Source: a virus. From it: 39,385 nucleotides of DNA. Where the stretch lies: positions 1-39,385 of the IMG/VR virus record IMGVR_UViG_3300044525_000005; one strand, written 5' to 3'. Positions 1 through 13,623 of this stretch are shown here, piece by piece (position 1 is the first letter of the stretch; every line of letters begins with the position of its first letter). Made by a program: the position numbers and the translations under genes. The notes beneath the pieces are model-generated. The model did no database searches, was not told where the DNA came from, and saw nothing but the letters and a program-made list of their open reading frames with translations.

Positions 1-1635
1 TTTCAGTGTCGGCTCGCTGATTCCTTCCCCGTGGGCCGCTTTTTTGATGTCTTTGCTGGGTGCTTCGAACGCGTCGGCGAGGTAGTCGAGGAGCCATTCT
101 GCGGCGTCGTCCCGGTCGGTGCGTTCCTCGTCGGTGCGTGGCCCGGCGAGTAGTGAGTCTGAGGTGCGGTTGACGGGGCCGAGCCATTCGACGCGGGCGC
201 ATTCGTGTTCGGGGGTGTTGGCTAGCCGGTAGCCGAGGGATTCGGGTTTGGCGGCGAGGTTGCTTTTGGTGGTGGCGAGGACGTATCTGGTGTCGTCGTC
301 GGGGTCGGTGGCGGCGAGGAGTCCGAGTCGGGCTGCGCCGATGATGCCGATGGATCCGCCGCCGCGGTAGATGGCGGATTCACCGCCGGATTTGTTGAGG
401 TGCCGTAGCAGGAGGACGCAGCAGTTGACGCGTTCGGCGAGAGCTGCGAGGGCGGCGAGGACGACGCGTATGTCTTGGTCGCGGTGGGAGTCGACGCGGG
501 TGGGGATGTAGGCCATGAGGACGTCGAAGATGATGAGTTTGACGGATAGGCGGCGGGCTTCGGCTTCGATGATGTCGGTGTCGGCGAGGGTGACGGGTCG
601 AGCTCTGGTGTCGCCTTTGTCGTCGGTGTAGCGGATTTCGATGAGGGCGTAGACCTTGTCAGGGTCGCCTTGGGCGGCGTCGAGGCGGGGGCGGATGGTG
701 TCGGCGAGGCCGTCTTCGGCGGAGAGGAGGAGTACGTTGCCGGGATGTTGGCAGGGGGCGTGGTCGGGCCAGTTGGCTCCGGTGGAGACGCGTGCGGCGA
801 AGTCGATGGAGAGGGTGGATTTGCCGACGGAGGGGTCGCCGTCGAGGATGACGATTTTGCCGAGGGGGAGGTGTCCGGGCCAGAGCCATCGGACGTGTTC
901 GGTTTCGACGGTGGCGAGGGGGGTGGACACGGGGCCGATGTGGCCGTTGAGCCGGGTTTTGTCGGGGGGGTCGATGCGGATGAAGTCGCCTATGCCGTGG
1001 CCGGCGGCGATGTGGTCGGCGGCGTCTTTGCCGGTTCGGGGGCGGAAGACGGCGACGGTGGCGTGGCCGGTGAGGGAGTGGTATACGTCTGCGGCGTGGG
1101 CGGCGCCGGCGGGGTCTTGGTCGGCGATGATGAGGATGTTGCCGCCGTAGAGGGGTGTGGGGTCTACGCGGTTCCATTTTCCTGCGCCCATGGGTGAGCA
1201 GGTGGCGGTGACGCCTTCTTCCTCGAGCGCGTGGACGTCCTTTTCGCCTTCGACGACGAACACCGGTTTATGGTCGGCGACAGCTGCTTTGACTTTTGCC
1301 AGCCGGTACAGCTCGGGCGCGTTTTCGGTGTAGCGCTGGTGGAATCTTTTGTCGGGGGTGCGTCGTACGATGCGGCCGTTGTCGTAGGGGTAGTCGGTGC
1401 CTTTGGGGTTGTCGAACAGGTCGCTGGGGGTGAGGTTGAGCGCGCGGAGGACTGCTTCGGTGGCGCAGCCGGCTTGGCAGTAGATGAGGGTTTGGCCTTC
1501 GATGCCGGTGACGGACAGGGATGGTTGGGTGTCGTCGTGGGCGGGGCATTGCGCAGCCGCTTTCGCCGCGCCTCTGGTTCGGACGGCTCGGCCGTCTCGG
1601 GTGAGGGCGTCGAGGACGCGTTCGTACGCGGTCAT
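1..1635 (-). CDS. Bifunctional DNA primase-helicase (C-terminus cut by window edge)
   Basis: Likely synthesises RNA primers and unwinds DNA at the phage replication fork. I translated 545 residues with no stop before position 1, so the C-terminus is outside the window. Residues C30, H33, C53 and C57 form a CHC2-like primase zinc finger; a TOPRIM core follows with EGEKD at 129-133 and an acidic ADQDPAG near 171-177. The second half is a RepA/DnaB-like RecA-fold ATPase with Walker A GDPSVGKST at about 266-274 and a Walker B strand LIIFD near 367. The ATG at 1635 overlaps the stop of the upstream methyltransferase by ATGA, showing one leftward operon. The very Val/Gly-rich open frames on the opposite strand here are compositional shadows. 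Architecture is clear; only the extent of the C-terminus is unknown. Confidence 0.93.
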   Translation of the reverse strand, partial: MTAYERVLDALTRDGRAVRTRGAAKAAAQCPAHDDTQPSLSVTGIEGQTLIYCQAGCATEAVLRALNLTPSDLFDNPKGTDYPYDNGRIVRRTPDKRFHQRYTENAPELYRLAKVKAAVADHKPVFVVEGEKDVHALEEEGVTATCSPMGAGKWNRVDPTPLYGGNILIIADQDPAGAAHAADVYHSLTGHATVAVFRPRTGKDAADHIAAGHGIGDFIRIDPPDKTRLNGHIGPVSTPLATVETEHVRWLWPGHLPLGKIVILDGDPSVGKSTLSIDFAARVSTGANWPDHAPCQHPGNVLLLSAEDGLADTIRPRLDAAQGDPDKVYALIEIRYTDDKGDTRARPVTLADTDIIEAEARRLSVKLIIFDVLMAYIPTRVDSHRDQDIRVVLAALAALAERVNCCVLLLRHLNKSGGESAIYRGGGSIGIIGAARLGLLAATDPDDDTRYVLATTKSNLAAKPESLGYRLANTPEHECARVEWLGPVNRTSDSLLAGPRTDEERTDRDDAAEWLLDYLADAFEAPSKDIKKAAHGEGISEPTLK

Positions 1636-2615
1636 ACGTCGTCGTGTCCGAACGTCTCCCCGAATAGTCCTTGATCCGCTGCCGACTCGTCGTCGACCGC
1701 TTCCATGTTTTTGATCGCCTGCCGGTAGTAGCTGGGTTTCAGCTCGACCCCGATGCCGAACCTCCCTGATCTGACCGACTCGAACACTTCCGACCCGACG
1801 CCCATGAACGGTGTCAGCACCCGCTCGCCGGGGTTGGACCACAATTGGAGGCATCGTTGGATCACGTCGAGCTGCAGCGGGTGCATGTGTTTCTCGTCGT
1901 CCTCGTCGCGGGCGTCGCGGAAGGGCAGCACGCGGCCGAGGCGGATGTCGTCCCAGAACGCTGACGCGTACTGCCGCCAGATCCAATGCGAGTAGCGGTT
2001 CTCGATCTGCTTGCCTGTCCATCCTCGGTATCGCGTGAGTTCGGCCGGGACTTGCCTCTCCCCGGCGTAGTCCGTCAACCCGGTGGGATGGGGGATGGGG
2101 ATTGGGTTCTCGCCGTGCTTGCGGAACACCAGCAGGTAGTCGGCGGATGCGACTGAGCATCGTGAGGAGTCGTCGACGATGGTGCGGTGGGCGAGGTTTT
2201 TAGCGAGGGTTCGGTTGCGGACGCCGAGGGGTTCTTTCCATATGTGGTAGCGGGCGATGTAGTTGAATCCGATTGCGCGGTGTTGCCGGATGATGTCGCC
2301 GGGGAAGTCGGTCAGGGCGTCGCAGCCTGAGTTGCCGGTGGGCACGTCCATGCAGTGGACTGCGGTCATCCGGCCGGGCATGGTCAGCCGGAATAGCTCT
2401 TCGACGACGTAGGCGTAGTGCTGGAAGAACTCTTCGTAGCTGCGGGAGTTGGACAGGTCACGTTCGCTTGAGGAGTAGTGGTATAGCCCCGCGAACGGCG
2501 GGCTGTATATGGACAGGTGGGTCGAGTCGGCGGGCAGCTTGGCCATGACGTCGATGCAGTCGGCGTTGTAGATGGCCCACCGGTCGGTGATTTGCTGGTC
2601 GATCACGCGAGCCAT
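1632..2615 (-). CDS. Beta-class DNA N6-adenine/N4-cytosine methyltransferase
   Basis: A 327-residue DNA_methylase family enzyme that should transfer a methyl group from S-adenosylmethionine to the exocyclic amine of adenine or cytosine. The catalytic motif IV appears as SPPF at residues 38-41, and the SAM-binding motif I FMGVG at about 270-274 is followed by a typical IGVELKPSYY helix-strand. The order IV then I places it in the beta group. The start ATG at 2615 lies inside the last codons of the SNF2-like helicase gene (13-base overlap), and its stop overlaps the primase start. No restriction enzyme gene is adjacent, so it is probably a solitary methylase protecting phage DNA or marking it. 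Whether it acts on A or C cannot be told from the motif SPPF alone. Confidence 0.9.
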   Translation of the reverse strand: MARVIDQQITDRWAIYNADCIDVMAKLPADSTHLSIYSPPFAGLYHYSSSERDLSNSRSYEEFFQHYAYVVEELFRLTMPGRMTAVHCMDVPTGNSGCDALTDFPGDIIRQHRAIGFNYIARYHIWKEPLGVRNRTLAKNLAHRTIVDDSSRCSVASADYLLVFRKHGENPIPIPHPTGLTDYAGERQVPAELTRYRGWTGKQIENRYSHWIWRQYASAFWDDIRLGRVLPFRDARDEDDEKHMHPLQLDVIQRCLQLWSNPGERVLTPFMGVGSEVFESVRSGRFGIGVELKPSYYRQAIKNMEAVDDESAADQGLFGETFGHDDV

Positions 2616-3988
2616 GGCGGCATCTCCATCGGGGTGGTGAACGCTGTGTCTGGGCGTATGCGGACAGCGGTGTTCATGTGGCCGACCAGAGCGGTGAACA
2701 TGGCGTCGGCTTGGACGGCTTTGCGTTGGAGGTTCGCGAGGATCCCCGCGCCCCCGTCGGTGATGATCATGTCGACGGTGACCGGGTGTGTCTGCCCGAA
2801 CCGCCATGACCGCCGGATCGCTTGGTACATCTGCTCGTAGCTGTGGCTGGGGAAGTAGGTCATGCGGTGGCAGTGCTGCCAGTTCAGTCCGAATGCGCCG
2901 ATCTTCGGCTTGATGACCAGCACCCGGAATTGTCCTGTGGTGAACGCTCGCAGCTTCTCCTCTTTCGCTTCGGTGCTGTCCGATCCGGAGACCTCGACCG
3001 CGCCGGGGATGATCGTGGTGAGTAGCTTCGACTCGTCATTCAGATGGCACCAGGCGACTGCGGAGTCAGCGTCGGCGAGCAGCTCTGCGGCATGCTCGCA
3101 GCGTTCGGTGATCGTGCGGCGCAGCACTTCCCGTTCCTCGGCGAGCCCTGAGGCGGGCACATCGAACAGGGTGTCGGGCCGCGGTGCGCGGGCTTCGACG
3201 GTGGTGATCCGCTGGTCAAGGGGTGGAAGTGTGAACCCGTCGTCATCGAATCCGAAGTCCGACGGTTTGCGGATCGCCCGTGCCCAGGAGGAAACCCATC
3301 GCCAGAAGGCGTCCTGGCCGTGGCCCTTGAAGCGCCAGCCTTCTTTGTTCTTCGCGCCGAACCGTCCGCCGGCGCGGGTGTCGGAAGTGCGTTGTGCGTT
3401 GATGAAGAAGCGGTTGAGCATGTCGATGTGGCCGAGCTGCCCGAGGGCTTCGGACGCGGTGCCGAGCTCGACGTAGTCGTTCGGAGCCGCGGTGGCTGTG
3501 CCCAGTAGCCGGTAGGGCATTTGTCGGAGGAATTCGGTGACGATCGCGCGGCGCACTCCGTCGAAAGCTTTGATCGCTGAGGATTCGTCGCAGACGACAC
3601 CGCCGTAGTCCGCCGGGTTGAACTTCTCGAGACGTTCATAGTTGGTGATGGTGATCGCCGCGGCGACGCTGCCGTCGCGGGACACTGCGGCGTCGATCCC
3701 GCCGAACTTGTCAGCTTCAGCTTTGATCTGGAAACCGACTGCGAGGGGTGTGACCATCAGTACAGGTTTTCCGGTGTGCTCGTGCACGTTCTGAGCCCAC
3801 ACTAGCTCCATGGGGGACTTTCCTAAGCCGCAGTCGGCGAACAGTCCCGCTCGGCCTTGCCGGATCGCCCATTCGGTGAGCGCCCGCTGGAACGGGAACA
3901 GGTAGTCCGGCAGGTAGGTGGGTTCGAATCCGCCCATGTCCCTGAGTTGGGTTTTGGACGCGAGGAAGTCGGCGTAGGCCGCGGTCAT
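2603..3988 (-). CDS. SNF2/DEAD-like superfamily 2 helicase
   Basis: A 461-residue ATP-dependent DNA translocase or helicase. Visible motifs are a Q-like entry region (YLFPFQRALTEWA), Walker A CGLGKS near residues 53-58, motif Ia in VLMVTPLAV, a DESS Walker B (134-137), motif III-like LLGTATAAPND and a C-terminal motif VI QAIRRSWRFGQTHPV, which is typical of SNF2 proteins. ATG at 3988 overlaps the C5 methyltransferase stop by ATGA. It lies between two DNA methyltransferase genes, an arrangement seen in many actinobacteriophage replication operons. It may remodel DNA during replication or help the methylases; the exact substrate is inference. The protein looks intact. Confidence 0.9.
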   Translation of the reverse strand: MTAAYADFLASKTQLRDMGGFEPTYLPDYLFPFQRALTEWAIRQGRAGLFADCGLGKSPMELVWAQNVHEHTGKPVLMVTPLAVGFQIKAEADKFGGIDAAVSRDGSVAAAITITNYERLEKFNPADYGGVVCDESSAIKAFDGVRRAIVTEFLRQMPYRLLGTATAAPNDYVELGTASEALGQLGHIDMLNRFFINAQRTSDTRAGGRFGAKNKEGWRFKGHGQDAFWRWVSSWARAIRKPSDFGFDDDGFTLPPLDQRITTVEARAPRPDTLFDVPASGLAEEREVLRRTITERCEHAAELLADADSAVAWCHLNDESKLLTTIIPGAVEVSGSDSTEAKEEKLRAFTTGQFRVLVIKPKIGAFGLNWQHCHRMTYFPSHSYEQMYQAIRRSWRFGQTHPVTVDMIITDGGAGILANLQRKAVQADAMFTALVGHMNTAVRIRPDTAFTTPMEMPPWLA

Positions 3989-5070
3989 GCGCCACCCGCC
4001 ACGACGGACATGTAAGCGTTGTGGCAGATGGGCTGCCAGTCGAGGCGCAGCAGGTGCCCGAGCACGGCGACGGCGAGAAGTGGCGGCATGGCGTCCCCGA
4101 CTTGCCGGAACTGCGCTGTGCGGGAGCCTCGCCACGGGTAGCCGTGCGGGAATGATTGCAGGGTCGCGGCCTCTTCTATCGTGACGCGGACAGACTGCTC
4201 ACCGAACTGCCGCTGCCCGCCGGCGCGATCACGGTGGCCAGGTCCAGCGACCCATGACGCTGTGCGCGCTTTAGACGTGATGACAGGTGCCGGTCGGTCA
4301 GCTCGGGTGTCGGGGCGCTCGCCGTGCCGCTCATTCATCCCTGCGCCCCGGTGTAGCCGGTACGCGCGCAAGTCCGCGTGCCCGAGCGCTTGCGCCATGG
4401 TGACGCACGGCAGCAGGTCCTCGCCGAACAGGTCCGGCGCGGGTGTGACGCCAGCGCGGTATCTGTGATGTGTCGCGGGTGGCCTGCCGACGTCGTGCAG
4501 CGTGGTCAGCGAGGCGGTGAGGATTGCCCGGTCGCGGGTCTGCGGAACCCCGTACATCTCAGCGTCCAGAATCCCTGCCCACACGCGGTAGCCGAGGCCA
4601 CGCATCCATTCGGCGAGCCTCTCGAAGAAGGGCAGCACGGCGGGCACCTGCTCTAACGCGACCCACGTCGGGCGTAGCGCGAGCACAGCGCGGACGATTT
4701 CCAGCACGAGTGGTGACCGTTCGTCGTGCCAGCCTTCACCCGGGTAGGGAACCCATTCGCCGCGCTCAGCGACCAGTGCGAGGTGTGCGAAGATCGCGGG
4801 CTGGTCGAGCAGGCCGCGGCGCTTGCCTGCCCTGGACCATGCTTGGCAGGGTGCTGACGCGATGTACCCCCATGCGCGTAGCGCGCCCTCGCGGGGCAGG
4901 GTTGTGACGTCGGATGGGACACGCCCATGGCCTGCGGCCAGCGCTGTGGCGCACGCGTGCTTGTCCTTCTCGTAGCCGATGACGCCCTTGACGCCGAGCG
5001 TCCGCGCGCCCTCGTCCCACCCGCCCGGTCCCGCGAAGTCCTCAATGATTAGTCCGTAGCACGAACTCAT
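3985..5070 (-). CDS. DNA (cytosine-5) methyltransferase
   Basis: A 361-residue C5-cytosine methylase. Conserved motifs are in canonical order: motif I DFAGPGGWDEG (11-21), motif IV with the catalytic cysteine in APCQAW (PCQ 74-76), a motif VI variant LEQVPA in place of the usual ENV (E140), motif VIII QTRDR (177-181), and motif X VGDAMPP near the C-terminus. The target-recognition region lies between about 200 and 310. I chose the ATG at 5070 over an upstream start because it overlaps the WhiB stop as TGATG and brings motif I near the N-terminus, as is usual. No cognate restriction endonuclease is next to it, so protection of phage DNA from host restriction is the likely role. Its sequence specificity is not predictable here. 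Confidence 0.93.
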   Translation of the reverse strand: MSSCYGLIIEDFAGPGGWDEGARTLGVKGVIGYEKDKHACATALAAGHGRVPSDVTTLPREGALRAWGYIASAPCQAWSRAGKRRGLLDQPAIFAHLALVAERGEWVPYPGEGWHDERSPLVLEIVRAVLALRPTWVALEQVPAVLPFFERLAEWMRGLGYRVWAGILDAEMYGVPQTRDRAILTASLTTLHDVGRPPATHHRYRAGVTPAPDLFGEDLLPCVTMAQALGHADLRAYRLHRGAGMNERHGERPDTRADRPAPVITSKARTASWVAGPGHRDRAGGQRQFGEQSVRVTIEEAATLQSFPHGYPWRGSRTAQFRQVGDAMPPLLAVAVLGHLLRLDWQPICHNAYMSVVAGGA

Positions 5071-5285
5071 CACTGATCCCCCCCATTCCGGATCCGGTCC
5101 CGTGCGCGGGTGGTCAGTCCGCCCCACACACCTTGCCGCTCATCATGCTCGAGCGCGTAGGCGAGGCACTGCTCACGGACTCCGCACCGGCCGCAGACTC
5201 TGATCACGGCCGACTCCGGATGCACGGGGGGGTACCAGAATTCGGGGCCGATCTGAGCGCACAAGGCAGAGCCCATCCACGACAC
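5070..5285 (-). CDS. WhiB-family iron-sulfur transcription regulator
   Basis: A 71-residue WhiB-like protein. The four cluster-ligand cysteines are present in ALCAQ, RVCGRCGVREQC (C-x2-C-x5-C), followed by the family turn GVWGG and an Arg-rich DNA-contact tail. WhiB proteins bind a [4Fe-4S] cluster and partner the principal sigma factor of Actinobacteria; phage versions are known to act on host division and superinfection. An upstream reading frame exists, but the only in-frame start codons before this GTG lie inside the upstream gene, so GTG at 5285 is preferred. That start sits inside a perfect 14-base-pair hairpin (5281-5313), which may control its translation. Stop and next start overlap as TGATG. 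Confidence 0.88.
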   Translation of the reverse strand: MSWMGSALCAQIGPEFWYPPVHPESAVIRVCGRCGVREQCLAYALEHDERQGVWGGLTTRARDRIRNGGDQ

Positions 5286-5313
5286 GTCGTCCCGCCGCTC
5301 GGGACGACGTGTC
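5281..5313. promoter_or_regulatory. Perfect 14-bp inverted repeat over the WhiB start
   Basis: GACACGTCGTCCCG at 5281-5294 is exactly repeated in inverted form at 5300-5313 with a five-base loop. On the leftward transcript the 3' arm includes the region just before the GTG start of WhiB and the start codon itself, so a folded RNA would hide the ribosome site. As DNA the same palindrome could be an operator for a dimeric regulator, including WhiB partners. There is no T-run after it, so it is not an ordinary terminator. The match is seen directly; the function is inference. Confidence 0.7.
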
Positions 5314-5412
5314 CGCCGCGGAGGTTTCCTAACGGGCTTGGCTAGGTACGACTGCGCCGTCGCTGAGAGTCCCCCGCCGCCGTTCGGCTTACCCCGCTCC
5401 GCGCTCCCGCGG

Positions 5413-5823
5413 TCAGTCGGCGACGGCGCGCCATTCACCCGCGAACTCCCGCTGCCGCCCCACCCGGTACGTGCCAGGCGCGATCTGGAAATCACCGTGC
5501 TCGTCATGATGCAGCAGCACCGGTAGCTCAGCCTCCTCCGGAACCGTGAGGATGCCGATCACCAGTGAATCCGTGCGACTGGTGACGAAGTCGAACTGGC
5601 CTGGGCCGTGCAGCGAATGCGTGTGACCGCCCTGCCCGCTCAGCAACACGACACCATCACGCGGGATCGGGGTTTCAGCGGCCTTCGTCGTGATCCTCAG
5701 AACGCTGATGTCACCTTGCGCGCAGGCCCGGCTGATCAGCGGGACGAGCATGTCGCGGTCGAGGTAGTCCAGCGGCTCCTTGCCGTGGACCGCGATCGCG
5801 TCTGCCAGAGTGAAAACTCTCAT
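5413..5823 (-). CDS. Companion protein of the DUF6745 gene (RQREF tail), unknown function
   Basis: A 136-residue soluble protein with no catalytic motif that I recognise. The N-terminus (MRVFTLADAIAVHGKEPLDY) looks like a helical cap, the middle has a Gly/His-rich turn GQGGHTHSLHGPG near residues 63-75, and the C-terminus IAPGTYRVGRQREFAGEW is a beta-hairpin-like stretch. From memory, small proteins ending in a YxVxRQREY-type tail are often encoded beside DUF6745 genes in actinomycetes and other bacteria; that recollection needs a database check. It follows the DUF6745 gene after 42 bases with a good AAAGGAA ribosome site, so the two are probably co-expressed and may form a complex. Function unknown. 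Confidence 0.75.
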   Translation of the reverse strand: MRVFTLADAIAVHGKEPLDYLDRDMLVPLISRACAQGDISVLRITTKAAETPIPRDGVVLLSGQGGHTHSLHGPGQFDFVTSRTDSLVIGILTVPEEAELPVLLHHDEHGDFQIAPGTYRVGRQREFAGEWRAVAD

Positions 5824-5865
5824 AACGGGTTCCTTTCATCTGTTGGGGGTCCTGGGTAGGACCAT

Positions 5866-7245
5866 CTATCGGCGGTGCTCCAACTGCCGGTACGCCTCCA
5901 CTGGCCAGTCGTACAAATCAGCGGCGGCGGCGACGGGGTCGGTGTGGTGCGCTGGCACGGGCAGCCCGAACCTGCGCCGCTCACCGCCACGCTCGACGGT
6001 GCCGTTCACGCAGAGCAGTATCCGCGCCGGTTCCGCATAAAGGTTTTCCAGTTCGGATGGGAGGTCGTACAGGCCGATACAGTGCGGCGCGTTGCCAGGG
6101 TCAGCGCACTCAGCGACCAACTTGAGACCCGCCTCGCGGATGAAAACATCCCATCCCATACGCTCGATCGCGCAGCGCCGTATCTCAGCGTTCGACTCAC
6201 GCAAGATTCGACTGACACTCCACCCTGGGTCGAGCAGGTCTGATGGCACGCGAGTGCCGTGCCATGCGTGGATTCCCCACCCGTCAGGCCAGGCGATTGC
6301 CGGACCGGTTTCGCAGTGCAGCCTATTCTGCGGATCGCGAAGCAGGACCACGGGGTGCTCGGTGAGGACCGCAAACGTGGTGAACGGCCACCACCAGCCA
6401 GCGCTCCTAGCAATTATTTGCTGTCCGTGGATCAGCGATAGCCCTTTAACTTCAAGGCGCTCCATCATGCTGAGCCATGAGTAATAGCCCGCCCAGAATT
6501 GTCCGGCTATGACATTAGTCCACCAGTCGCTCACCTGGTCGCTCACCTGGGCGCGCACCTGGTCGCCCACCTGGGCGCGCACCTGGTCGTCCACCTGGGC
6601 GTCCACCTGGGCGTCCACCTGGGCGCCCACCTGGTCGCCCACCTGGGCGTCCACCTGGTCGTACACCTGGTCGTCCACCTGGGCGTACACCTGGTCGTCC
6701 ACCTGGGCGCGCACCTGGGCGTCCACCTGGGCGTACACCCGGGCGTACACCTGGGCGCGCACCTGGTCGTCCACCTGGGCGTCCACCTGGTCGTCCACCT
6801 GGTCGTCCACCTGGGCGTGCACCTGGGCGTCCACCTGGTCGTCCACCTGGGCGCGCACCTGGTCGTCCACCTGGGCGCGCACCTGGGCGTCCACCTGGTC
6901 GTACACCTGGGCGTACACCTGGGCGCGCACCTGGGCGTCCACCTGGTCGTACACCTGGTCGTCCACCTGGGCGTACACCTGGTCGTCCACCTGGGCGCGC
7001 ACCTGGTATGCGGTGACAATCCCTGGGGTGACTGCCTGACCGATGACACCAGCCCACGGCGAGCCTAACCAGATCATGAACTGCGGCGGATCAAGCCCGG
7101 CTGCCTCATATGCGAGGCGAACTCCACGCTCGGCCTCCACGTGATCAGAGGGCTCGGTCGAGAGACCATGCGCAAGCCACTCGTCACGAACCTCCGGCAG
7201 CATCGCTAGTTGCTCAGTGGTCAGTGCATTGATCAGTTTAGTCAT
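5866..7245 (-). CDS. DUF6745-like protein with 40 tetrapeptide repeats
   Basis: A 459-residue protein in three parts. Residues 1-80 resemble the N-terminal part of DUF6745 proteins (LAYEAAGLDPPQFMIWLGSP). Residues about 81-240 are forty uninterrupted copies of a four-residue unit Q-V-x-[A/D], where x is D, R, Y, G, H or S; one copy has R in place of Q. Residues 241-459 are rich in Trp and carry family-like segments such as LRDPQNRLHCETGPA and DGWGIHAWHGTRVP. No enzyme motif, signal peptide or membrane span is visible. Its start overlaps the upstream gene by ATGACTAA, and the RQREF companion follows. DUF6745 has no established function; the repeat might be a long solenoid or helical spacer. 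Family assignment is from pattern memory, moderately sure. Confidence 0.8.
   Translation of the reverse strand: MTKLINALTTEQLAMLPEVRDEWLAHGLSTEPSDHVEAERGVRLAYEAAGLDPPQFMIWLGSPWAGVIGQAVTPGIVTAYQVRAQVDDQVYAQVDDQVYDQVDAQVRAQVYAQVYDQVDAQVRAQVDDQVRAQVDDQVDAQVHAQVDDQVDDQVDAQVDDQVRAQVYARVYAQVDAQVRAQVDDQVYAQVDDQVYDQVDAQVGDQVGAQVDAQVDAQVDDQVRAQVGDQVRAQVSDQVSDWWTNVIAGQFWAGYYSWLSMMERLEVKGLSLIHGQQIIARSAGWWWPFTTFAVLTEHPVVLLRDPQNRLHCETGPAIAWPDGWGIHAWHGTRVPSDLLDPGWSVSRILRESNAEIRRCAIERMGWDVFIREAGLKLVAECADPGNAPHCIGLYDLPSELENLYAEPARILLCVNGTVERGGERRRFGLPVPAHHTDPVAAAADLYDWPVEAYRQLEHRR
6526..7005. repeat. 12-bp minisatellite, 40 tandem units
   Basis: Exactly 480 bases made of 40 in-register 12-mers. On the coding (minus) strand each unit is CAGGTG followed by a variable NNC codon and then GAC or GCC. 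The CAGGTG half is invariant except in one unit (CGGGTG). Because the unit is a multiple of three, copy-number change keeps the reading frame of the host gene. Several other frames on both strands are also open through the tract simply because of the repeat; they are not genes. Confidence 0.97.
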
Positions 7246-7612
7246 TGCGTTCCCTCTCGACTGCGGACGCCTCTGCGGCGAGGGACAACTGGTTGTCGGC
7301 TTCGGCTCGGGCGGCGGCGAGGTTTTCCTCGGCGGCGGTGAGCATCTTGTCAGCGAGGTCGGCGTCCACTTCGGTGATCCGGTCTGCGGCGATGGTGTGG
7401 ACGCGTGTGACGGTGCCGTCCTTGTCGGTGTGGGCGACTTGGGTGCATGTTCCGGCGAGGATGTAGTGGACGGTTTCGCCGAGTTGCAGGGCGTGTGGCG
7501 AGACTTTGAGGGCTTCGCTGAGCCCGTCGCCTGCCCTGGTTATGCGGACCACGGATGCGCTGACGTGGCTGGTTTCGAAGAGGGGGAGTGTGGGCTCGGG
7601 TCGCTTGGTCAT
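7238..7612 (-). CDS. Conserved phage protein of unknown function
   Basis: A 124-residue acidic protein. The first 80 residues are beta-rich (SVVRITRAGDGLSEALKV, HYILAGTCTQVAHTDKDG) and the C-terminal 35 residues form a charged Ala-rich helix likely to be coiled coil. ATG at 7612 overlaps the RusA stop by ATGA, and the stop overlaps the DUF6745 start by eight bases, so it is translationally coupled on both sides. The position next to RusA, RecT-like and exonuclease genes suggests a role in DNA metabolism, but no motif shows one. Confidence 0.75.
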   Translation of the reverse strand: MTKRPEPTLPLFETSHVSASVVRITRAGDGLSEALKVSPHALQLGETVHYILAGTCTQVAHTDKDGTVTRVHTIAADRITEVDADLADKMLTAAEENLAAARAEADNQLSLAAEASAVERERND

Positions 7613-8058
7613 ACTGCTTCTCCTACGGGGGTGAGTGTGATGCTGGCACCGGTTGGGCAGCCAGCTTCGACGTAGAGTTTGTACGCCTGGACGCAGACGA
7701 TGCGGGAGTCGTCGGTGATCACGCCGGAGGTCGTCAGCGCGTCGAACGTGGATCGCAGCAGCTTGTCGAGGTCGGGCTTGGTGGAGTGCCACCTGGGTGC
7801 GAAGGGTTTCAGGGTGGAGGCGTTGCGGCCCGAGCCGTAGTGGCTTTTGGGGCGGCGGAACATGAACGTGACGGTCACGTCCACCGCGCGCAGGGGCGTC
7901 CAGCCTCTTCGGCGGGCTTCGTCTGCGGCGGCGGCAGCCACGGAGTCGCGCCACGGCGCCACCCGTTTGGATGACTCCACCATGACCCCGTTGCCCACGT
8001 GCCTCTTGGACCCCTGGGGTGCGGGATCGCCCACTACCACGAACCCGAGACTGGTCAT
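7609..8058 (-). CDS. RusA-like Holliday junction resolvase
   Basis: A 149-residue RusA-family endonuclease, which cuts branched recombination intermediates as a dimer. The N-terminal PAPQGSKRH and the signature KPDLDKLLRSTFDAL with the following GVITDDSRIV contain the paired aspartates that bind the metal ion in this family. Start ATG at 8058 overlaps the stop of the RecT-like gene by ATGA, and it forms a recombination set with that gene and the upstream nuclease. It may also resolve branches before packaging. No sign of damage. Confidence 0.92.
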   Translation of the reverse strand: MTSLGFVVVGDPAPQGSKRHVGNGVMVESSKRVAPWRDSVAAAAADEARRRGWTPLRAVDVTVTFMFRRPKSHYGSGRNASTLKPFAPRWHSTKPDLDKLLRSTFDALTTSGVITDDSRIVCVQAYKLYVEAGCPTGASITLTPVGEAV

Positions 8059-12133: not shown

Positions 12134-13087
12134 TCACGGTTTGGGAGTGGCGTCACCGGTCAGGGTGACGGTGAACTTCGGCGGTGTCGGCTGCGCGGTC
12201 GTCAGCTTGGCCACGATCGTCTGCACCTGCGCGTCGGTGAGCGTGACCCCGGCGGCTTTGACTGCGTCGGTGATCTGCTGCGCTGTCAGAGGTTTCACCG
12301 AAGCAGCCTGCGCCGCCTGCTGCTGCGCGTCCGTCAGCCAGTAAGACATCGGATGCGGCGAGGTGTCGGCCTTCCCGGCCGCGTCCACATGAGCAACCGC
12401 GTACGCCCATATCGCCTTGACGTCGTCCGCTGATAAGGGCATGTCCCCTCCATAGGGTGAGTTGTCGGGCCACCACGCGCCGAGCGCGTAGGGGTCGATC
12501 AGAAGATTGGAGTCGGTGCCGGGGACGGGCGAACTGTGCCACGACCCGTCCAGGTTGTGCTCCTGCACCATGCACACAAACGGCGACCTGATGTTGTACG
12601 GCTGATTCCAGGTGCTCATCATCAGCCAATGCTTCCCGCGTAGCTTTGTGCTGCCCGGGTTCGCGCCGAGCCAGTCGATGAGGTCGCTCTGCCCGTACAG
12701 GAACGCGGGGTGACGCCCGCCCATCCCCGCTTGCGCGGCGTCGAGCTTCTGAGCCATTTCAGGAAACCGGCCGGCGGGGACTTGGGTGTCGATCGAGAAG
12801 GACACGCGGACGCCAGCGGGCACACCCAGAGCGTTGCAAGCGTTGAGCGCCTCCACGCCGGCCTGCCCGCATTCGCCCACGCTGTAGGTGAGGAACGCGT
12901 CCGCCGCACGCTCCCAGTTCGGGGAGAACCCCATTCCTTTGGCCCTGATCTGGTCCACCCTCGCCCTGTCGATGTGGGCGAACCCGCCGGGGCTGCCGAC
13001 GATGTACCCGGTGCACGCCGCGCCGCCGTTCGCCTTCGCCACGTCCAGGTCGAATGCGGACGCGCCGTCGTACACCCACAGCGTCAC
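12134..13087 (-). CDS. Endolysin with DUF1906 glycoside-hydrolase-like domain
   Basis: A 317-residue lysin. Residues 1 to about 215 look like the DUF1906 TIM-barrel family: an N-terminal YDGASAFD strand with an acidic residue, VPAGVRVSFSIDTQ, HPAFLYGQSDLIDWL and WLMMSTWNQPYNIR. Related domains are cell-wall lytic enzymes in phages of Actinobacteria. The remaining 100 residues are an Ala/Gln-rich tail (SYWLTDAQQQAAQAASV, LTAQQITDAVKAAGVTLTDA) that may serve as cell-wall or oligomer contact. No signal peptide, so export depends on the holin that follows. GTG at 13087 overlaps the upstream stop by GTGA and places the barrel start at the N-terminus. Confidence 0.85.
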   Translation of the reverse strand: MTLWVYDGASAFDLDVAKANGGAACTGYIVGSPGGFAHIDRARVDQIRAKGMGFSPNWERAADAFLTYSVGECGQAGVEALNACNALGVPAGVRVSFSIDTQVPAGRFPEMAQKLDAAQAGMGGRHPAFLYGQSDLIDWLGANPGSTKLRGKHWLMMSTWNQPYNIRSPFVCMVQEHNLDGSWHSSPVPGTDSNLLIDPYALGAWWPDNSPYGGDMPLSADDVKAIWAYAVAHVDAAGKADTSPHPMSYWLTDAQQQAAQAASVKPLTAQQITDAVKAAGVTLTDAQVQTIVAKLTTAQPTPPKFTVTLTGDATPKP

Positions 13088-13623
13088 CTCGCACGCCCCA
13101 AGGCCTTGAGCATCTTGTCGTGCTCGATGTCCAGGATCGGCCTGGCTTCCGCGCACACGCTCGCGTTGCGCATGATCGTCAGCTCGTTGTCCTGCAAACG
13201 CTCACCGCTCGTGGACCAGTTCGTGGAGCCTGAGAGTCGCCACACGCCGTCGATGATCGCCATCTTGCGGTGCATTATCGCTGACTTCTCCGACGTGCCG
13301 ACAGCGACGCTGTTGCCGTCCATCTCATGCTTGTATTTCTCGAGGATGGCTCTCTCGTGGACGCCGCCAGCCTGGGATTTGTCGAGGCTGATCTGGCAGT
13401 AAATCTTGCCGTTCAGGAGAAAACCGTCGATGAGAGCGGCGAGCGCGTCGTCGTCGTAGCCGTACATGGCCAGGACGAGGCTGGTTGTGGTGGAGCTGAT
13501 GACTGCCTGCAACGCGCCGTGGACGTCGTCCCACGGGGAGTAGAAGGTCCGCATGTCGTCTGGGTATCCGGCTCCGACACCGGACGCCTTGTACTGGTCG
13601 AGGTCGCTGATCTGCAGCGTCAC
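13084..13623 (-). CDS. Phospholipase D-like (single HKD) enzyme
   Basis: A 179-residue protein of the PLD superfamily. The catalytic motif HRKMAIIDG (H-x-K-x4-D, residues 118-125) is followed by the typical WRLSGSTNWS, and the N-terminal half has the expected SSTTTSLVLAMYGYDDDAL and a PLD-like strand KIYCQISLDKSQ. With one HKD per chain it should work as a dimer, like the Nuc nuclease. The superfamily includes nucleases and phospholipases. Its place directly before the endolysin suggests attack on the membrane or on released host DNA during lysis. No signal peptide. Confidence 0.88.
   Translation of the reverse strand: MTLQISDLDQYKASGVGAGYPDDMRTFYSPWDDVHGALQAVISSTTTSLVLAMYGYDDDALAALIDGFLLNGKIYCQISLDKSQAGGVHERAILEKYKHEMDGNSVAVGTSEKSAIMHRKMAIIDGVWRLSGSTNWSTSGERLQDNELTIMRNASVCAEARPILDIEHDKMLKALGRAR

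What the first reader, a model, noticed from the sequence alone, without database searches (positions are those of the whole stretch)
5413..7245. Phage-borne two-gene module: DUF6745 repeat protein plus RQREF companion
The window carries a DUF6745-like protein and, 42 bases downstream, a 136-residue protein ending in a YRVGRQREF tail. From memory, these two gene types also sit together in bacterial genomes, with no established function. Finding the pair in a phage replication operon, between RusA and WhiB, suggests a real two-component system (structural, defence, counter-defence or regulatory) that has been mobilised. The long repeat makes the large partner a likely scaffold or ligand-binding arm. 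This is my best candidate for an undescribed system.
Basis: partly seen in the sequence, partly recalled or inferred. Interest (0 to 1): 0.75.

Follow-up and report, generated by a model that had tools for sequence, protein, structure and literature searches.

The report
Phage gene pair with hypervariable arm
Two neighbouring phage genes of unknown function turn out to be an almost inseparable pair across hundreds of phages and many bacteria; the larger protein carries a fast-changing repeat like one known to let another phage tune its counter-defence, and in bacteria the same pair usually sits beside an unstudied enzyme cluster.

Summary
On the - strand lie a 459-aa DUF6745 protein (7245-5866, Pfam E 3.7e-29) and, 42 bp on, a 136-aa protein (5823-5413), in the early region of a tailed-phage genome.

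Linkage is the strongest result. Of 80 viral DUF6745 loci, 70 have the RQREF gene beside it and the other 10 are cut at a contig end. In 121 Streptomycetaceae genomes, 54 of 56 RQREF genes lie within 3 kb of a DUF6745 gene. The pair is also in cyanophage Ma-LMM01 (gp175-gp174) and on plasmids. Both gene orders occur. Exceptions: cyanobacterial plasmids and a few Streptomyces paralogues.

Two further results. (1) In Streptomycetaceae the pair usually neighbours the uncharacterised STM4011-STM4015 cluster (two radical-SAM enzymes, hydrolase, ATP-grasp-like, LRR). (2) Most viral copies, and no STM-linked copy, carry the 12-bp repeat array. Within arrays amino-acid change far exceeds silent change (52 of 53 arrays), and near-identical prophages carry 19 versus 46 units. 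This matches mycobacteriophage Tweety gp54, whose repeat number tunes counter-defence, although no homology was found.

Neither protein has a known fold in the PDB. Most likely role: a two-protein early phage factor with a tunable arm, probably counter-defence. That function is inferred, not shown.

The parts
5866..7245 (-). DUF6745 protein, 459 aa: N-terminal domain (aa 1-~78), tetrapeptide-repeat arm (aa ~80-245), C-terminal DUF6745 domain (aa ~251-459)
   Evidence: Pfam PF20530 E 3.7e-29; AlphaFold2 with 25 homologues: C-domain pLDDT about 76-95, N-domain about 71-97
6512..7005 (-). Repeat array, 40 units of 12 bp encoding Q-V-x-x; x1 = D/R/Y/G/S/H, x2 = A/D; the third base of all four codons is invariant in 40 of 40 units (coordinates approximate)
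   Evidence: family-wide pattern
5413..5823 (-). RQREF protein, 136 aa: N-terminal helix plus beta-barrel; invariant QGD, H69, H106-x-E108-H109, G117, Y119, E126, D136, near-invariant Q124
   Evidence: AlphaFold2 pLDDT 90.8, pTM 0.85
5824..5865 (-). 42-bp intergenic gap with a purine-rich ribosome-binding-type sequence (AAAGGAAC) before the RQREF ATG
7609..8058 (-). RusA Holliday-junction resolvase, upstream in the same operon (context)
   Evidence: Pfam RusA E 2.3e-14
7238..7612 (-). 124-aa ORF of unknown function between RusA and DUF6745, overlapping both by a few bases (context)
5070..5507 (-). WhiB regulator downstream of the pair; the domain begins at residue 77, so the true start is probably near 5282 (context)
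   Evidence: Pfam WhiB E 3.9e-18

Best explanation
The two genes encode one functional unit. Shown: near-obligate linkage across phages and bacteria in both orders; early replication/recombination gene context in phages; a large subunit made of two conserved terminal domains joined, in most viral versions, by a tetrapeptide-repeat arm that changes length in 12-bp in-frame steps and is diversified at two residues per unit. Inferred: the RQREF protein (a beta-barrel without a PDB fold match, with an invariant H/H/E/H set, perhaps a metal site) binds the DUF6745 C-terminal domain; the arm sets the reach or binding surface between the N- and C-terminal domains; in phages the complex acts early in infection on a fast-evolving host or prophage target, most likely as a tunable counter-defence factor in the manner of mycobacteriophage Tweety gp54. 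The array-free chromosomal pair, beside the STM4011-STM4015 cluster, has a cellular task in that pathway which the phage form may borrow or interfere with.
For: Linkage: 70/80 viral DUF6745 loci, the other 10 cut at contig ends; RQREF-first search in 121 Streptomycetaceae genomes, 54/56 within 3 kb of DUF6745; order changed about 8 times on the RQREF tree while linkage held. Array: 58/69 viral copies have 8 or more units against 0/30 STM-linked chromosomal copies; variation confined to repeat positions 7, 8 and 11; pN > pS in 52/53 arrays (median 0.143 vs 0.014), whereas the C-domain shows pN far below pS in relatives. Prophages 99.65% identical over about 11.8 kb differ by 46 vs 19 units. Analogue: Tweety gp54 has the same architecture and the same silent-site pattern, and its escape mutants change repeat number (PMC2884959, PMC9262239, PMC8549241). 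Context: RecT, RecE/ExoVIII, replication initiator, RuvC-like, HNH and WhiB neighbours; in Ma-LMM01 the next gene is uracil-DNA glycosylase gp173, a middle-class gene in PMC5780444.
Against: Tweety gp54 shares no detectable sequence with DUF6745 outside the repeat idea, and no DUF6745 or RQREF gene was found in the 10 kb around it, so function is carried over by analogy only. Eleven of 69 viral copies have short or no arrays under my definition, among them Ma-LMM01. Neither protein resembles a known counter-defence protein by the searches made. No interaction was predicted or measured.
Confidence: 0.35

Rival explanations
1. Cell-derived pathway component: the pair's basic task is to support the STM4011-STM4015 cluster (two radical-SAM enzymes, alkaline-phosphatase/sulfatase-like hydrolase, ATP-grasp-like ligase, LRR protein), and the phage carries it as an auxiliary metabolic or protein-modifying gene pair.
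For: In Streptomycetaceae, 52 of 56 DUF6745 genomes also hold STM4015 (Fisher p 5e-19) and 49 of 59 DUF6745 loci lie within 20 kb of it. The same adjacency is seen in Deinococcus and Methylobacterium plasmids.
Against: None of the 110 viral loci examined nor the window has an STM4011-15 gene; many cellular pairs lack the cluster; the hypervariable array is absent from STM-linked copies.
Confidence: 0.25
2. Accessory of phage DNA replication or recombination: a scaffold that brings RQREF to DNA or to the RecT/RusA machinery.
For: Consistent place among RecT, exonuclease, resolvase and replication-initiation genes and next to DNA polymerase, clamp loader and uracil-DNA glycosylase in Ma-LMM01.
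Against: The annotated chromosomal and plasmid pairs have no such neighbours; early regions of temperate phages also hold many accessory genes; no nucleic-acid-binding family detected; rapid diversification is unusual for core replication factors.
Confidence: 0.2
3. Prophage-encoded defence or superinfection exclusion (including a toxin-antitoxin-like pair) rather than counter-defence.
For: Tight two-gene unit in phages, plasmids and chromosomes with both gene orders; a diversified arm would suit recognition of changing phages.
Against: No PADLOC match beyond weak hits in the repeat; present in lytic Ma-LMM01; array-free chromosomal form sits with an enzyme cluster; location in the replication region rather than near the immunity genes.
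Confidence: 0.15
4. No function of the pair as such: two independent genes that travel together, with a repeat that expands by slippage.
For: 12-bp arrays slip easily; a few DUF6745 genes occur without RQREF.
Against: Linkage across several phyla through about 8 order changes; silent sites homogeneous while coding sites are diverse.
Confidence: 0.04

Closest known systems
Mycobacteriophage Tweety gp54 (tunable tetrapeptide-repeat counter-defence protein; phrog_3416)
   Same: Unique N- and C-terminal parts flanking an array of 12-bp tetrapeptide units (48 in Tweety); silent third positions invariant while first and second positions vary; repeat number differs between relatives (PMC2884959; here). 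Temperate actinophage, with WhiB and DNA methylase genes nearby.
   Different: No sequence match of the flanking domains to DUF6745 and no RQREF gene in the 10 kb around it; unit is A-A-x-x, not [V/L]-x-x-[Q/A/S/G]; single gene, not a pair.
Pfam PF20530 / DUF6745
   Same: The C-terminal domain is a clear member.
   Different: A domain of unknown function; the library searched holds no paper naming it. The array and the partner are not part of the family definition.
phrog_27831 and phrog_31813 (Microcystis phage Ma-LMM01 gp175 and gp174)
   Same: The Ma-LMM01 pair matches them at E 1.5e-71 and 1.8e-275; the window pair matches at 2.7e-10 and 6.4e-5.
   Different: Both 'unknown function'; Ma-LMM01 gp174 has no tetrapeptide array.
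STM4011-STM4015 cluster (NCBIfam NF038073, NF006067, NF038075, NF038074, NF038076)
   Same: Next to array-free DUF6745/RQREF pairs in Streptomyces, Deinococcus and Methylobacterium.
   Different: Function unknown (one search found only passing mentions); absent from the window and from all viral loci examined.
Cupin-type metal-binding beta-barrels
   Same: Small beta-barrel with an invariant H/H/E/H set.
   Different: Foldseek against the PDB finds no cupin and no match better than E 0.57; metal binding untested.

Membership tests
Pfam DUF6745 (PF20530) | Profile score above the gathering cut-off | tested here: met
   101.9 bits against 27
RQREF family (phrog_27831) | Profile match plus QGD...H...HxEH...G.Y...RQRE...D signature | tested here: met
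   E 2.7e-10; invariant columns in 28 homologues
Tweety gp54 tetrapeptide-repeat family (phrog_3416) | Homologous N- and C-terminal regions | tested here: not met
   DUF6745 and RQREF profiles find nothing in Tweety 36-46 kb; gp54 matches phrog_3416, the window protein does not
Tweety gp54 tetrapeptide-repeat family (phrog_3416) | 12-bp array with diversified coding positions, uniform silent positions and variable copy number | tested here: met
   works-like evidence only, not homology
Tweety gp54 tetrapeptide-repeat family (phrog_3416) | Repeat-number mutants overcome a prophage defence | not testable with these tools
   Needs phage genetics
STM4011-STM4015 system | Presence of STM4011-4015 genes with the pair | tested here: not met
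   No hit in the window or in 110 viral loci; met for 49/59 Streptomycetaceae DUF6745 loci
Known anti-phage defence systems (PADLOC) | Match to a defence-protein model | tested here: not met
   RQREF none; the large protein only weak matches in its repeat, best E 0.0011
Cupin superfamily | Double-stranded beta-helix fold | tested here: not met
   No PDB fold match, best E 0.57
Two-protein complex | Physical interaction | not testable with these tools
   Complex folding not available; no natural fusion found

The most novel reading that the evidence does not exclude
A widespread, undescribed two-protein system: bacteria run an array-free DUF6745-RQREF pair with the STM4011-4015 radical-SAM/ATP-grasp cluster, and phages carry a version with a hypervariable, selection-diversified arm that jams or retunes this or another host system, making a new family of tunable counter-defence factors; DUF6745 alone matches over 300 viral contigs.
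Probability: 0.2. Interest if true: 0.85.

Novelty: new variant of a known kind. Interest (0 to 1): 0.62.

Why it matters
The pair is common (341 viral matches for DUF6745 alone), crosses phyla, and has no function and no known fold. It ties three unknowns together (DUF6745, RQREF, STM4011-4015), so work on one informs the others. The array offers a rare case where the changeable part is visible in the sequence, and repeat number can be tested directly against defence systems. It would also turn Tweety gp54 from a curiosity into one instance of a wider strategy.

Tried and rejected
Pfam, NCBIfam, PADLOC and PHROG scans gave no function. PDB fold searches with both models gave nothing better than E 0.57 and 1.2; the viral structure library gave one uncharacterised protein. 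A profile search of PDB sequences with the RQREF alignment gave only chance-level hits. Cupin membership rejected. Natural fusions as a surrogate for interaction: none. Papers on DUF6745: none; on STM4011-15: two passing mentions; a keyword search for a radical-SAM/LRR/ATP-grasp cluster: none. A search for more copies of the prophiGD102-1 lineage to extend the copy-number comparison found only the two viral contigs already held. Near DNA relatives of the window's first 20 kb in sequenced phages: none. The weak AbiEi hit of the RQREF protein (E 0.19) was set aside as chance.

Full report
What is there. The window is a 39,385-base virus record with portal, capsid and tape-measure genes. On the - strand an early-type run reads PD-(D/E)XK nuclease, an unassigned 421-aa ORF, RusA, a 124-aa ORF, DUF6745, RQREF, WhiB, C5 methylase, helicase-like protein, N4/N6 methylase. 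DUF6745 is certain (101.9 bits against a cut-off of 27). RQREF has no Pfam family and only phrog_27831, unknown function.

Linkage. RQREF-first viral searches and DUF6745-first viral searches agree. In one search every RQREF locus had DUF6745 nearby except L006, whose RQREF gene ends near a contig end, and L008, whose DUF6745 gene lies at the other end of the same record. In one search, 70 of 80 DUF6745 loci had RQREF on the same strand (55 DUF6745 first, 15 RQREF first), nearly all within a few hundred bases; in the 10 others the DUF6745 gene lies at the contig end where its partner could be missing. Isolates confirm it: prophiGD102-1 genes 37-38 (8-bp overlap), MW202476 and Microcystis phage Ma-LMM01 gp175-gp174. 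In bacteria, 9 of 296 sampled genomes of the actinobacterial phylum have DUF6745 and 8 have RQREF beside at least one copy; the ninth locus is cut. In 121 Streptomycetaceae genomes, searches made independently with each family gave 56 RQREF and 59 DUF6745 genes, 54 of them paired within 3 kb. On plasmids, all 9 records found with RQREF were also found with DUF6745, and two further loci had it by profile (L057, L058). Exceptions, so the link is not absolute: three cyanobacterial plasmids and one Mycolicibacterium plasmid, and Streptomycetaceae loci L223, L228 and L229. The tree of 118 RQREF proteins needs 8 changes of gene order; two rows (L097, L117) may be mis-scored by the script, so the true figure is perhaps 6. 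Keeping the pair while flipping its order argues for joint function.

Cellular context. Deinococcus, Methylobacterium and Streptomyces replicons carry the pair beside STM4011 and STM4012 (radical SAM), STM4013 (hydrolase), STM4014 (weakly ATP-grasp-like) and STM4015 (LRR). In the Streptomycetaceae sample, 52 of 56 DUF6745 genomes carry STM4015 against 10 of the other 65, and 49 of 59 DUF6745 loci have it within 20 kb. This is association among related genomes, so the p-value overstates independence; the occurrence in three phyla is the better argument. The literature held gives no function for either family. No STM gene is in the window or in 110 viral loci.

The arm. The window array has 40 units of 12 bp. 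Bases 3, 6, 9 and 12 are identical in all 40; bases 7, 8 and 11 vary. The same holds across the family: in 58 arrays the mean non-consensus fraction is 0.47, 0.13 and 0.35 at positions 7, 8 and 11 and about 0.03 at third-codon positions. Unit-to-unit pN exceeds pS in 52 of 53 arrays (medians 0.143 and 0.014), whereas the C-domain of related proteins shows strong purifying selection, for instance pS 0.54 and pN 0.07. Arrays of 8 or more units occur in 58 of 69 viral copies, in 5 of 19 cellular copies without STM genes nearby (some of these are prophages or their remains), and in 0 of 30 STM-linked copies. prophiGD102-1 and a viral contig 99.65% identical over about 11.8 kb carry 46 and 19 units; a third, more diverged copy has 62. 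Caveats: comparing units within an array is not a standard dN/dS test; units can be duplicated, so changes are not independent; high GC restricts silent change; short-read assemblies can mis-size repeats.

Structure. RQREF folds with confidence (pLDDT 90.8, pTM 0.85) as an N-terminal helix plus mostly beta strands, read here as a barrel, with invariant Q36-G37-D38, H69, H106, E108, H109, G117, Y119, E126 and D136 in 28 homologues. The set is suggestive of a metal or catalytic site, but I had no coordinates to measure it. DUF6745: the N-domain and C-domain are mostly confident, the repeat is drawn as long helices at pLDDT about 48-71, which I do not trust. Neither has a PDB fold match.

Mechanism. 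Shown: the pair, its spread, its context, the array's behaviour. Inferred: complex formation, a metal site, the arm as spacer or binding surface, and counter-defence. The last rests on Tweety gp54, which has the same architecture and the same silent-site pattern (PMC2884959) and whose escape mutants with more or fewer repeats overcome the Phrann or MichelleMyBell prophage defences (PMC9262239, PMC8549241). No homology to Tweety gp54 was found, so this is 'works like', not 'is'. In Ma-LMM01 the neighbouring gp173 is a middle-class (replication) gene in the published transcriptome (PMC5780444); the class of gp174 and gp175 themselves is not given in the text read. I put counter-defence at about 0.35, pathway component 0.25, DNA accessory 0.2, defence 0.15.

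Verdict. The function remains open. The new points are the near-obligate linkage, the STM4011-15 association, and the family-wide diversification of an arm that is found mainly in viral copies.

Noticed in passing
L136-L215, DUF6745 genes: Many viral contigs end inside or just beside the DUF6745 repeat array, suggesting assemblers break there; gene counts from metagenomes will undercount this pair.
   Followed up: partly
L054, L063-L068: Uncharacterised cluster STM4011-STM4015 (two radical-SAM enzymes, hydrolase, ATP-grasp-like, one or two LRR proteins), sometimes with many STM4015 copies in one genome (G304 and G330 have 7-8).
   Followed up: partly
L054, L055, L064, L065: In Deinococcus and Methylobacterium the DUF6745 C-terminal half is fused to a leucine-rich-repeat-like region instead of the usual N-terminal half.
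   Followed up: no
L055: Deinococcus ficus pair is followed by a VWA protein, a glutathionylspermidine-synthase family (ATP-grasp) protein and an ion transporter.
   Followed up: no
window 13087-13623 (-): Phage-encoded PLD-like (PLDc_2) protein next to a glycoside-hydrolase-like lysin candidate (12137-13156).
   Followed up: no
window 1632-5127 (-): Two DNA methyltransferases of different type and a helicase-like protein in one run, likely anti-restriction or DNA modification.
   Followed up: no
L030: One viral contig carries two RQREF-type genes near one DUF6745 gene.
   Followed up: no
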